From: Burkholderiales bacterium
Lineage (GTDB): Bacteria > Pseudomonadota > Gammaproteobacteria > Burkholderiales > Casimicrobiaceae
NCBI GenBank assembly: GCA_025354165.1
Contig: JANXNI010000034.1
Coordinates: 1-64,000 of the forward strand
Direction of reading: 5' to 3'
Length of the DNA stretch: 64,000 nucleotides
A program made the translations under genes and the position numbers. Below, in pieces: positions 53,960 through 59,354 of the stretch. Within the stretch, counting starts at the first letter, position 1; every line of letters starts with the position of its first letter. The notes under the pieces were generated by a model. That model saw nothing but the letters and a program-made list of their open reading frames with translations. It made no database searches and had not been told where the DNA came from.

Positions 53960-54946
53960 CTATTGGCTACCGTAAATAGCTACCGCCTCACACAGCGCCT
54001 GCGTCGCCAATTGTCTGCGCCGTGGACTCAGCAGGTTCACCCAACTTGGACGCGGATCAAATGCCGCGTGTCCGATCATCATGACCGGCGACTCATACTG
54101 CAACCATCGGTAGATCGCCGCACCGCCACCGCCGATGGCCTCGTGCATTGACGCGTCGAAATGGCTGCGGTACTCGTACGGCACGCCCGCGTTGTTGACA
54201 CGTTGCGCGAAGGTGCCGTCGGCGAGCATTTGATCCTCGACCGATTTCACGGTCTCGAAGGTTGATCTATCGAGGGCGCGTTCAATCTGAACCTCCCCTA
54301 ATGCGTCAAGATTGCCGGGAAGGAAATCCTGTAGTCGCCGGAACTCGGCGCGGGCGTTCGCTTTGACGTCTTCAAAACGAATGATCAGATACGAGGTGTT
54401 GTGAAGCTCGGCGTAGTGCTTCCATGTGGCCAGATGAAGCAGGTACGCGGCGGCGCGCGGCACCTGCCAGATAGGGTCGATTTGTTGGACCCAGTCGACA
54501 AATGCCGGGGCGTCCGCTTGCGATTTTTGCACGCGCCGCCATGCCGAAAAAAGTGCGTCGCGGGGATCGCGCACGAACAAAACGAGGCGTGGACCAAGCG
54601 GCCATTGGCCGGGCGTCGCATGGCTAAATCGCGGAACCAGATCGCCACGAAAATCAAAGCGACGACCTGAGACCAAACCGGGCAACACCCGCGACCATGG
54701 GTCGCCCTGATAAAAATATTCGTAAGCGGTGCCGTCGTGATGCTTCCATTCGAGCGACATGTCGACGTTCCACGGGTTCCAGATAGGATAGCCACACTCA
54801 AGCAGCATCGAGGCCAACCAGCTCGTGCCGCAAGGCAATTCGGCAGAAACGACGTCGAGGTTGTATTCGGGGAAATGTGCATATCCCGGGTGCTCACTCC
54901 TCGCCGCGTCTACGAACGCGAGTGGACGAAACGCGAACCGACTCAT
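53960..54946 (-). CDS. Sulfotransferase-fold protein (candidate transferase of phosphoramidate-like operon)
   Basis: LPCGTSWLASMLLECGYP (5'-PSB-like) and VLFVRDPRDALFSAWRRVQ (3'-phosphate-binding-like); overlaps upstream gene by 4 bp. Confidence 0.75.
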   Translation of the reverse strand: MSRFAFRPLAFVDAARSEHPGYAHFPEYNLDVVSAELPCGTSWLASMLLECGYPIWNPWNVDMSLEWKHHDGTAYEYFYQGDPWSRVLPGLVSGRRFDFRGDLVPRFSHATPGQWPLGPRLVLFVRDPRDALFSAWRRVQKSQADAPAFVDWVQQIDPIWQVPRAAAYLLHLATWKHYAELHNTSYLIIRFEDVKANARAEFRRLQDFLPGNLDALGEVQIERALDRSTFETVKSVEDQMLADGTFAQRVNNAGVPYEYRSHFDASMHEAIGGGGAAIYRWLQYESPVMMIGHAAFDPRPSWVNLLSPRRRQLATQALCEAVAIYGSQ

Positions 54947-55497
54947 GAGGCCAAACGCGCTAGATGAGCTTGCCGGGCGCGCCAGAGTTCACCGACTTTT
55001 ATGGCTTCGAGATTAAGTGAATGGATGTCACTATCGTTTGTAATGCTGTGATCCGGTGCGTCGGGCATTTCAGCGTGGATGTCTATGCCCACCACGTTAA
55101 TTGCATCCCGCATCAGTGCTTCTCGACGCGATTTCAGCAGCTCGGTGTGAGCGGTTAATAACGTTAGAACAAAGGGCAATTTCAGCGCTTGTTCGCATGC
55201 GCGATTCTTCTGGTGAATTTCAGTGAACAGGGAGATGGTAGAGACCACGCAGAGGCGGCCTTCCTGAGCGCTCAACCACGCGGCTTTCGACATCGCGCGG
55301 CCGACAGCTACGCGGTCGTCGCGCTGATATCCCGCACGCGGCATGCAAAGCTTTCTGAAATCGTCACCATCGAGCTGCGTGACATTAGGGTGTGCCACTC
55401 GCATCGAGCGCACCACCTCGGCAGCAAGGGTTGTTTTGCCAACGCCCGACAGCCCGCAAATCCAGATCACACCACCGCCATTAGGCTCTCCAGTCAT
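54943..55497 (-). CDS. APS-kinase-like P-loop kinase, CDP-amidate kinase (Cj1415)-like
   Basis: GVIWICGLSGVGKTTLAAEVVRSM; VTQLDGDDFRKL; VVSTISLFTEIHQKNR instead of canonical CysC FISPYR; start at ATG 55497. Confidence 0.75.
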   Translation of the reverse strand: MTGEPNGGGVIWICGLSGVGKTTLAAEVVRSMRVAHPNVTQLDGDDFRKLCMPRAGYQRDDRVAVGRAMSKAAWLSAQEGRLCVVSTISLFTEIHQKNRACEQALKLPFVLTLLTAHTELLKSRREALMRDAINVVGIDIHAEMPDAPDHSITNDSDIHSLNLEAIKVGELWRARQAHLARLAS

Positions 55498-57048: not shown

Positions 57049-59354
57049 CGGTCAACTCGCATGTGGTGCTGTTCAAAATCTATGGTGATGTGCGCCGCCT
57101 CACGCAGCGCGCCGTACACCGTTTCGCCGCAACCCAAAACACAGGGCACATTTAGCTCGGCGCAGCGAATAGCCATGTGCGAATGCGGGCCACCGTAACA
57201 AGTCACCAGCGCGGCAAACGGGTACTGGAATATCCAGTCATAGCCAGGGTCCGCGGCCCGAATCAGCACTACAGCCCCGGCAGCGATCACGCGCGCTTCG
57301 GTATGCCGCCCAATCACACAGAGTGGTGCTGAAACGCGGTCGTGACCCTGCGCCTGAAAAGTTGGACGTAGCGCGGGTTCGATACTCGCCCGAAAATCAG
57401 CGCGGCTGGAAATGAGTAAAGGCATCTTGATCGTGCCCTCAATATCGTGGCGCTTTTTGGCGGATGCGCTCTGCCAAATTAGATGATCAAGGTCATTGCC
57501 GCTGACCAGATTTTTGATAGTTAGGAAAGACAGGTCATGCGCGCTCAAGCCGCGATCTTTTCCCCAACGTGCCGCCGCAGAGAGCCAATTCGACACCGAT
57601 TGCGACAGGCCGTATTTCCATAACTCGCGCAGCTCGATGCGTCTCAGCGCGTTGGCAATCCATGCGTCGGCATCCGCCTCCATGCGCCACGCTTTGAGCA
57701 GCGGCGTAATCGTGCGTTGCTCTTGTTTCGCAACCTTGAAAGTTGGCGCCGTGACTGCGCCTGCGTGTGATGAATTTGTCACTATGGCATCGATCTGAAT
57801 CGGATCGACGCAGATGTCGAAGGTCGCGGGCCGCAACGCTCCGGCGGCATGTGCATGCTCACCTGCCACCGAGGTGACTGCTGACACGCAGCTCAACAGG
57901 CGTGCATGTCGCCTCGGGCTCAATGCGCCCGCACTGACGAGGCTCGACAATTGAAAACGCGCAACGAAAGCGAGCCTTGCGTGCATGGCAAAGGGCAGCG
58001 CGAGCGTTTGCCGAATTACGCCGAGAATCGCCATCAGCTCACTTGAGTTCTTACACGCGCGACAGCTTGCATCAATGTCCCGCAGCAACGATGCGACGCG
58101 CTCGTTTGTATTCGACGGCGCGGAAAACGCCTGCCAGATCGGCTCCATCGCGATGAGCGCGTCGCGCCACGTACGCTGCGCGGACTTGCCGAGGCCGGCG
58201 TCGCTCAGTTGCCCCGTCCATTCGTCGGCGAACCCGATACAGGTGGGCTGTAGCTCCGTCTCAACGCGGTCGTGCAGCTCTGGGTGATGCTTGAGCTTGT
58301 CGATGCTTGCGTCGATTACTGGTGTCACCACCGCGTCGGCAATACCGCGTGGAATCAGTGAATTCAGACTCGCGCGCAGGTCCACGTAGGGGCGACCCGC
58401 GAAAACGCCGAGCAACGGATGCACCGCAGACTGGCGATATCCGAGATTGATTCGGGCGTCTCGCCAAACATGGTTGGTAACAAGCTCGCCGAAGAGCGAA
58501 AGCGCTAAGGGTCGCGGGTGTTCGCCGAGCAGCTCTGCGGGGTTCCAGTCGGGCATGAGTCCGAACACGGTGTAACGACCCAACTCGGCTTCGCGCGGCC
58601 GCGCGCGCTGGTTGTAGGTGCGCTCGATTTTTTGCCGCTCCGCTTCGAGCGCAGCGCTTGTATTTTTGATCGGAGCTCGCGTGGACGGACTGACCTGCAA
58701 CAGGCGGAGTCGGCCTCGACGATCCACCGCGACCTCAAGCTCCAGCGCGGTTCGCTGAAGCACAGATTCGATTGTCGCAAGCAGCGCAAATGCACGTCGC
58801 ACAGCGCTTGGCCAACGGGGTGACGGTGTCGAATTTTGGGTCAACCAGAATCGCTGAACGTTGGTCCAGCCTGCGGTGATGGCGCTGGTTACGTTGGTTA
58901 CGTTGGCCCCGCCGATAGCGTCGCCAACGTAGTAGCTCAGCGAAGCCGTGCCCGCAAAAGAGGTTGAGTTTGCCGACGTAACGCCAAGCATGGCTGCTGC
59001 GTCCGCGACCCACATCTGGATCAGCACTTCGTCAGCATCGTTGAGCACACCGTAACTCGTGAATACCGCATTGACCGCGCGAATCAGCGCACTGCGACGG
59101 TTGCCGGCAACAGGCCCGAACGAACGATAGCGACCCGCCTGGCCAGCCGCACCACCACTTTCGTTGTGTTTGCTGCTGCGTACGGCGACCCATGCATTCG
59201 GAAATTGCTTTTGAATTCGCGTCAGGCAATCGCTGCGATTTTCCTGCCATTCGGTGGCGCCAATGACCGCCAAACGAGGCACGTATCGGCCAAGGCGCGA
59301 GCGCAGCACCAGAGCAAGCCACGCCGCCTTGGACGCAGGCTGGTCGGACGTCAT
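57045..59354 (-). CDS. PEP-synthase-like ATP-grasp/phosphohistidine protein, glutamine kinase (Cj1418)-like
   Basis: AVRSSKHNESGGAAGQAGRYRSF; FGLMPDWNPAELLGEHPRPLALSLFGELVTNHVWRDARINLGYR; HPLLGVFAGRPYVDLRASLNSLIPRGI; C-terminal swivelling His motif CYGGPHSHMAIRCAELNVPCVLG. Confidence 0.8.
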   Translation of the reverse strand: MTSDQPASKAAWLALVLRSRLGRYVPRLAVIGATEWQENRSDCLTRIQKQFPNAWVAVRSSKHNESGGAAGQAGRYRSFGPVAGNRRSALIRAVNAVFTSYGVLNDADEVLIQMWVADAAAMLGVTSANSTSFAGTASLSYYVGDAIGGANVTNVTSAITAGWTNVQRFWLTQNSTPSPRWPSAVRRAFALLATIESVLQRTALELEVAVDRRGRLRLLQVSPSTRAPIKNTSAALEAERQKIERTYNQRARPREAELGRYTVFGLMPDWNPAELLGEHPRPLALSLFGELVTNHVWRDARINLGYRQSAVHPLLGVFAGRPYVDLRASLNSLIPRGIADAVVTPVIDASIDKLKHHPELHDRVETELQPTCIGFADEWTGQLSDAGLGKSAQRTWRDALIAMEPIWQAFSAPSNTNERVASLLRDIDASCRACKNSSELMAILGVIRQTLALPFAMHARLAFVARFQLSSLVSAGALSPRRHARLLSCVSAVTSVAGEHAHAAGALRPATFDICVDPIQIDAIVTNSSHAGAVTAPTFKVAKQEQRTITPLLKAWRMEADADAWIANALRRIELRELWKYGLSQSVSNWLSAAARWGKDRGLSAHDLSFLTIKNLVSGNDLDHLIWQSASAKKRHDIEGTIKMPLLISSRADFRASIEPALRPTFQAQGHDRVSAPLCVIGRHTEARVIAAGAVVLIRAADPGYDWIFQYPFAALVTCYGGPHSHMAIRCAELNVPCVLGCGETVYGALREAAHITIDFEQHHMRVDR

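What the first reader, a model, noticed from the sequence alone, without database searches (positions are those of the whole stretch)
53960..59354. Five-gene overlapping operon resembling a phosphoramidate (MeOPN-type) biosynthesis cassette outside a capsule locus
Seen directly: five minus-strand ORFs overlap at every junction (57045/57048, 56263/56266, 55481/55497, 54943/54946). In order they are a PEP-synthase-like ATP-grasp/His protein, a SAM methyltransferase, an NTP transferase, an APS-kinase-like P-loop kinase and a sulfotransferase-fold protein. Established knowledge: in Campylobacter jejuni, O-methyl phosphoramidate capsule modification uses Cj1418 (L-glutamine kinase, PEP-synthase-like), Cj1416 (CTP:phosphoglutamine cytidylyltransferase), Cj1417 (gamma-glutamyl-CDP-amidate hydrolase), Cj1415 (CDP-amidate kinase, annotated as APS kinase) and methyltransferases Cj1419/1420. 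The 769-aa protein has the MPDWNPAE..PRPLALSL and PYVDLRASLNSLIP blocks that I associate with that glutamine-kinase family. Inference: the operon makes a nucleotide-activated phosphoramidate or related phosphoryl donor. No capsule, glycosyltransferase or flippase gene is within the window; the flanks are aceA and fccAB, so the acceptor is unknown.
Basis: partly seen in the sequence, partly recalled or inferred. Interest (0 to 1): 0.87.

Follow-up and report, generated by a model that had tools for sequence, protein, structure and literature searches.

The report
Phosphoramidate cassette with sulfotransferase-fold partner
A five-gene bacterial operon looks like a divergent version of the pathway that Campylobacter uses to make an unusual phosphorus-nitrogen tag, but it ends in a protein shaped like a sulfate-transferring enzyme that probably transfers the phosphorus-nitrogen group instead, and a hydrolase gene usually present is missing.

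Summary
In detail: five minus-strand genes with overlapping junctions lie between aceA and fccB. The 769-aa protein matches, end to end, the glutamine-kinase-type model NF004508. It keeps the catalytic His and the acceptor-domain blocks, and the same partner genes recur beside relatives in 80 loci from many phyla. Corrections and additions: (1) Almost every relative also has a class-I amidohydrolase (the Cj1417 role). Sister operons carry it directly upstream of the kinase gene; here it is absent from the locus and not found elsewhere in a 95%-complete genome. (2) The kinase lacks two ATP-grasp residues invariant in 86 of 86 relatives outside its clade. (3) The last gene is not incidental: a dedicated sulfotransferase-fold family belongs to this operon type, and sulfotransferase-type proteins lie near 27 of 80 cassettes. 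(4) This protein keeps the 3'-phosphate-binding motif of PAPS enzymes but lacks their 5'-phosphosulfate Lys/Arg, and the APS-kinase-like protein lacks the SPYR motif. Best reading: the operon makes a 3'-phospho-CDP-phosphoramidate (a PAPS analogue), and the sulfotransferase-fold protein transfers the phosphoramidate. Acceptor unknown; no activity tested. New variant of a known kind.

The parts
57045..59354 (-). Glutamine-kinase-type PEP-synthase-like protein (769 aa): ATP-grasp N-domain, acceptor domain, swivelling His domain (His726); lacks the otherwise invariant D66 and R222
   Evidence: NF004508 4.7e-140 over the full length; PF00391; AF2 model pLDDT 84, best fold match rifampin phosphotransferase; residue census
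56263..57048 (-). SAM-dependent methyltransferase (261 aa)
   Evidence: PF08241 8e-18; homologues next to glutamine-kinase genes in many loci, E about 1e-40 to 1e-78
55481..56266 (-). NTP transferase (261 aa); nearest solved relatives are CTP-using PntC and LicC
   Evidence: PF12804 2e-18; 6pd1 4.7e-11 and 1jyk 1.8e-7; cassette partner in almost all loci
54943..55497 (-). APS-kinase-like P-loop kinase (184 aa) with STISLFTEIHQKNR in place of SPYR; probable nucleotide-phosphoramidate 3'-kinase
   Evidence: NF004041/PRK05541 2.3e-27 (below cut-off), PF01583 1.1e-15; alignment A3 and A3 vs PDB
53960..54946 (-). Sulfotransferase-fold protein (328 aa): 3'-phosphate motif VRDPRDALFS (R126, S134), invariant H109, 5' loop LPCGTSW without Lys/Arg; proposed phosphoramidate transferase
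   Evidence: PF00685 4.1e-10; family alignment A2 and A2 vs PDB; AF2 pLDDT 90.7 and Foldseek hits to PAPS sulfotransferases

Best explanation
The operon is a compact, capsule-independent variant of the MeOPN-type phosphoramidate cassette. Proposed steps, all inferred: the kinase puts a phosphoryl group on the amide of L-glutamine (or a close analogue); the NTP transferase couples it to CMP from CTP; the glutamyl part is removed by a hydrolase that sister operons encode but this locus does not; the APS-kinase-like protein adds a 3'-phosphate, giving a PAPS-like 3'-phospho-CDP-phosphoramidate; the methyltransferase methylates the phosphoramidate; and the sulfotransferase-fold protein binds the 3'-phosphonucleotide and transfers the (methyl) phosphoramidate to an unknown acceptor. 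Shown here: sequence relationships, synteny, motifs and predicted folds. Not shown: any reaction, the order of the last steps, or the acceptor.
For: Full-length match to NF004508; cassette relatives score 908-951 bits in the same model and have PRK05541-type kinases above its cut-off. Residue census: His726, E65, R59, Q220 and the acceptor blocks are conserved in essentially all sequences examined. Partners NT, APSK and MT, plus the C26 amidohydrolase, recur beside the kinase in most of 80 loci from many phyla; an annotated Azospirillum plasmid shows the same set with a glycosyltransferase nearby. Sister operons L007, L010, L021 and L036 have amidohydrolase-kinase-MT-NT-APSK-ST. The tree puts the window with the ST-bearing operons on one side of a fully supported branch. 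The ST family shares contig lengths with kinase homologues (5790, 10137, 10844, 13445, 14709 and others). Sulfotransferase-type proteins lie near 27 of 80 cassettes, 23 within 6 kb on the same strand. The ST keeps the 3'-phosphate motif and an invariant His but not the 5'-phosphosulfate Lys. The APSK lacks SPYR and has the cassette-kinase motif, unlike the genome's other APS-kinase-like/sulfotransferase pair, which has VCPTEATR and PRSGST.
Against: No dedicated amidohydrolase in the locus or found in the genome (genome about 95% complete). D66 and R222 of the ATP-grasp site, invariant in 77 canonical and 9 other ST-group sequences, are replaced throughout the window's clade, so ATP use cannot be assumed. 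Kinase and APSK fall below curated cut-offs. The fold search placed the ST among PAPS sulfotransferases with only moderate TM scores, and no donor was tested.
Confidence: 0.6

Rival explanations
1. Glutamyl-retaining variant: the window's clade has dispensed with the hydrolase, so the donor is 3'-phospho-CDP-(N-gamma-glutamyl)amidate and the transferase moves a gamma-glutamyl-phosphoramidate to its acceptor.
For: No amidohydrolase at the locus, none found in the genome. In the amidohydrolase search, hits lie on contigs whose lengths match P0019, P0021, P0022, P0023, P0026 and P0033 kinases, but not the long contigs of the closest clade P0007-P0009. The clade-specific D66/R222 change shows its chemistry may differ.
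Against: Nearly all other lineages keep the hydrolase.
Confidence: 0.17
2. Sulfation operon: the kinase and sulfotransferase make and use PAPS, and the PEP-synthase-like protein and NTP transferase serve a different modification.
For: APS_kinase and Sulfotransfer_1 Pfam matches; PAPS sulfotransferase fold. APS can be made in this genome: CysD and CysN are encoded.
Against: APSK lacks SPYR; the ST lacks the 5'-phosphosulfate Lys/Arg; both are tightly linked to the glutamine-kinase-type gene and not to cysDN; the genome has a separate APS-kinase-like/sulfotransferase pair with more standard motifs.
Confidence: 0.1
3. The kinase-type protein no longer makes N-phosphoglutamine and instead phosphorylates another acceptor, so the operon makes a different nucleotide-activated phosphoryl compound.
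For: Loss of D66 and R222; score below the NF004508 cut-off; nearest fold is rifampin phosphotransferase, a family with varied acceptors.
Against: All acceptor-domain blocks are unchanged and the downstream cassette genes are the usual ones.
Confidence: 0.13

Closest known systems
Campylobacter jejuni O-methyl phosphoramidate pathway (Cj1415-Cj1418, methyltransferases Cj1419/1420, transferases Cj1421/1422)
   Same: Glutamine-kinase-type protein, CTP-type nucleotidyltransferase, APS-kinase-like kinase and methyltransferase; sister operons also have the class-I amidohydrolase
   Different: Not in a capsule locus; hydrolase missing here; a sulfotransferase-fold protein as last gene; kinase diverged at two ATP-site residues. 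Roles of cj1415-1418 and cj1421/1422 are from PMC3907429; enzyme steps from PMC6429109 and general knowledge. Sequences were not compared directly.
PAPS synthesis and sulfotransferases (CysC + SULT type)
   Same: Same logic and folds: a kinase that adds a nucleotide 3'-phosphate and a transferase with the 3'-phosphate-binding motif
   Different: Kinase lacks SPYR; transferase lacks the 5'-phosphosulfate Lys/Arg; linked to glutamine-kinase-type and NTP-transferase genes, not to ATP sulfurylase
Rifampin phosphotransferase / PEP synthase family
   Same: Predicted three-domain architecture and swivelling His domain
   Different: Acceptor domain carries the MPDWN and PYVD...ASxxSxxP blocks of the glutamine-kinase type; sequence match to PEP synthases is mainly in the His domain
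Phosphoramidate groups in lipopolysaccharides of Xanthomonas campestris and Shewanella
   Same: Show that phosphoramidate decoration exists outside Campylobacter (stated in PMC3907429)
   Different: Biosynthesis genes for those were not examined here; the acceptor of this operon is unknown

Membership tests
Glutamine kinase type (NF004508 / Cj1418-like) | Full-length profile match | tested here: met
   residues 7-766 of 769, 4.7e-140
Glutamine kinase type (NF004508 / Cj1418-like) | Score above the curated cut-off (501 bits) | tested here: not met
   468 bits; sister Tahibacter protein 514, canonical cassettes 908-951
Glutamine kinase type (NF004508 / Cj1418-like) | Catalytic His and acceptor-domain blocks | tested here: met
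   H726, MPDWN..E, PYVD, HD..E, R460, R508, RE..K invariant or nearly so
Glutamine kinase type (NF004508 / Cj1418-like) | ATP-grasp D66 and R222 | tested here: not met
   S66 and S222; invariant in 86 of 86 sequences outside the window's clade
Glutamine kinase type (NF004508 / Cj1418-like) | ATP-dependent phosphorylation of L-glutamine | not testable with these tools
   needs purified enzyme
MeOPN-type phosphoramidate cassette | Kinase, nucleotidyltransferase, APS-kinase-like kinase and methyltransferase together | tested here: met
   window genes and 80-locus survey
MeOPN-type phosphoramidate cassette | Class-I amidohydrolase (Cj1417 role) | tested here: not met
   absent from the window and not found in the genome; present upstream of the kinase in sister operons
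MeOPN-type phosphoramidate cassette | Homology of each protein to Cj1415-Cj1422 | not tested
   Campylobacter sequences could not be fetched
CDP-phosphoramidate kinase type (PRK05541 / Cj1415-like) | Score above the model cut-off (127 bits) | tested here: not met
   96 bits, but it is the best NCBIfam model
CDP-phosphoramidate kinase type (PRK05541 / Cj1415-like) | Cassette-kinase motif TISxFxExxxxNR | tested here: met
   STISLFTEIHQKNR
Adenylylsulfate kinase (CysC) | SPYR motif | tested here: not met
   alignment with solved APS kinases
PAPS sulfotransferase | Fold and 3'-phosphate-binding motif | tested here: met
PAPS sulfotransferase | Lys/Arg in the 5'-phosphosulfate loop | tested here: not met
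   LPCGTSW against PKSGTNW; the Lys falls in a gap of a weak alignment segment

The most novel reading that the evidence does not exclude
A sulfotransferase-fold enzyme class has been re-purposed, in many phyla, to transfer phosphoramidate rather than sulfate, using a 3'-phospho-CDP-amidate that mimics PAPS; the window's clade may go further and keep or bypass the glutamyl group because it lacks the hydrolase.
Probability: 0.45. Interest if true: 0.8.

Novelty: new variant of a known kind. Interest (0 to 1): 0.62.

Why it matters
Phosphoramidates are rare in biology and their synthesis is known in detail only for Campylobacter capsules. The survey shows the donor cassette is widespread (353 related stretches in genome contigs). 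It also suggests that its transferases are sulfotransferase-fold proteins, which annotators would call sulfotransferases beside 'APS kinases'. If true, many bacterial 'sulfation' annotations near such genes are wrong, and an expected but unseen group of P-N modifications becomes directly testable. No held paper combines phosphoramidate, glutamine kinase and sulfotransferase.

Tried and rejected
True PEP synthase: rejected, because sequence matches to solved PEP synthases are mostly in the His domain. CysC/PAPS operon: disfavoured on motifs and linkage. Recent foreign island: base composition is like the neighbours, although presence in the genus is patchy (3 of 18 genomes) and the three kinases are only 34-48% identical, which suggests exchange. 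Hydrolase remnant upstream of the kinase: none found in six frames. Shared genomic site with the sister operon L007: rejected, since aceA, fccAB and purB are not on that contig. No promoter, no more-than-chance terminator and no RNA family at the operon. The NT and APSK labels came from over-extended iterative profiles and were not relied on; some searches were used.
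Full report
Observation. Five minus-strand genes lie between aceA (52111-53457) and fccB (59575-60879). They are open throughout and each overlaps the next by 4, 4, 17 and 4 bases. 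Pfam gives PEP-utilizers with a weak PPDK_N, a class I methyltransferase, NTP_transf_3, APS_kinase and Sulfotransfer_1.

The kinase. The 769-aa protein matches NF004508 over its whole length (468 bits, cut-off 501). Proteins of the same kind in classical cassettes score 908-951 bits and a Tahibacter sister protein 514. Several of its 48-52% homologues are called 'glutamine kinase' by their source. Its AlphaFold model (pLDDT 84) is closest to rifampin phosphotransferase, which fits a PEP-synthase-like enzyme that phosphorylates a small acceptor. In a census of 98 sequences the catalytic His726 and the acceptor-domain blocks are conserved. Two ATP-grasp positions, D66 and R222, are invariant in 77 canonical and 9 other ST-group sequences but replaced in all 12 of the window's clade. 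This is a real caution: I call it a divergent relative that probably works like a glutamine kinase.

The cassette. A genome scan found 353 related stretches and returned the best 80 loci, from Proteobacteria, Acidobacteria, Omnitrophota, Verrucomicrobia, Firmicutes, candidate phyla and archaea. Beside the kinase gene lie, in most, a homologue of the window's NTP transferase, the APS-kinase-like protein and often the methyltransferase. They also have a class-I amidohydrolase of Pfam Peptidase_C26, as expected for the Cj1417 role. An annotated Azospirillum plasmid shows the same set near a glycosyltransferase gene; two other plasmids show parts of it. In some Acidobacteria the kinase is fused to the APS-kinase-like domain. 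I take this synteny as the main support for the phosphoramidate reading. What Cj1415-1418 and Cj1421/1422 do is from PMC3907429 and PMC6429109, with enzyme details from general knowledge.

The subtype. Operons L007, L010, L021 and L036 have the order amidohydrolase, kinase, methyltransferase, NTP transferase, APS-kinase-like, sulfotransferase-fold. The kinase tree puts these and the window on one side of a 100% supported branch. They sit among unrelated housekeeping or catabolic genes, so they look self-contained rather than parts of a polysaccharide locus. In the genus only 3 of 18 genomes have a kinase of this family.

The missing gene. The window has no amidohydrolase upstream of the kinase, only 220 bases before fccB, and no remnant in six frames. 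The genome (95% complete, 97 contigs) has no relative of the sister hydrolase at the search threshold (that search had no positive control). The C26 model finds only partial matches; one was read and is a TrpG-type protein beside trpD, and the others have lengths typical of multidomain amidotransferases (inference). Contig lengths suggest that the P0019, P0021, P0022, P0023, P0026 and P0033 kinases do have the hydrolase next to them and that the window's nearest clade may not. That is indirect and the list was truncated.

The sulfotransferase-fold protein. Its model is confident (pLDDT 90.7) and its matches are PAPS sulfotransferases. The family keeps the 3'-phosphate motif VRDPRDALxS and an invariant His, but the 5' loop reads LPCGTSW, one residue shorter than PKSGTNW and without the Lys (the loop alignment is weak). 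The APS-kinase-like protein has STISLFTEIHQKNR where solved APS kinases have SPYR. The same genome carries another APS-kinase-like/sulfotransferase pair with more standard motifs (VCPTEATR, PRSGST), and it encodes CysD and CysN. So PAPS may exist in this cell, but these two proteins look built for something else.

Is the association general? Yes. Among 113 sampled neighbours of classical cassettes, five match Sulfotransfer_3 and two Sulfotransfer_1. A wider search finds sulfotransferase-type proteins near 27 of 80 loci, 23 within 6 kb on the same strand; Pfam confirms many individually. By contrast, Sulfotransfer_1 rings in only 2 of 14 control genomes and only once more in this one. These neighbours belong to several different sulfotransferase families. 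This suggests, but does not prove, that sulfotransferase-fold proteins are usual phosphoramidate transferases of such cassettes, matched to a donor that mimics PAPS. I found no paper that says so in the held library.

Conclusion. The operon most likely makes and transfers a nucleotide-activated (methyl) phosphoramidate, confidence about 0.6. The acceptor, the fate of the glutamyl group and the effect of the two lost ATP-site residues are open.

Noticed in passing
window 57045-59354 (residues 66 and 222): Two ATP-grasp residues invariant in every relative examined outside the window's clade are both replaced in that clade; they may be a co-evolving pair.
   Followed up: partly
L043:12604-15334, L080:14426-17165, L051:6547-8019: Tandem or single Sulfotransfer_3 proteins (about 440-490 aa) directly downstream of classical cassettes in Acidobacteria and Gammaproteobacteria.
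   Followed up: partly
neighbours in alignment A4 (50 loci): Ten of 113 sampled neighbours of classical cassettes match Formyl_trans_N, an unexplained recurring partner.
   Followed up: no
L105:473-1758 (own genome, contig C83): A small APS-kinase-like protein overlapping a sulfotransferase gene with a PRSGST loop, a second such pair in the same genome.
   Followed up: partly
L035:9350-12268 and similar loci; P0039: Kinase fused to the APS-kinase-like domain (about 970 aa, Acidobacteria) and, in P0039, to an NTP transferase domain.
   Followed up: no
L010:15423-18331: The sister operon is followed by a Rieske oxygenase and a glutamine-synthetase-type gene and preceded by an aldehyde-dehydrogenase-type gene.
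   Followed up: no
phage record MT837632.1, 733-2985: A 9.5-kb unannotated 'Bacteriophage sp.' record encodes a full-length relative of the kinase (27% identity).
   Followed up: no
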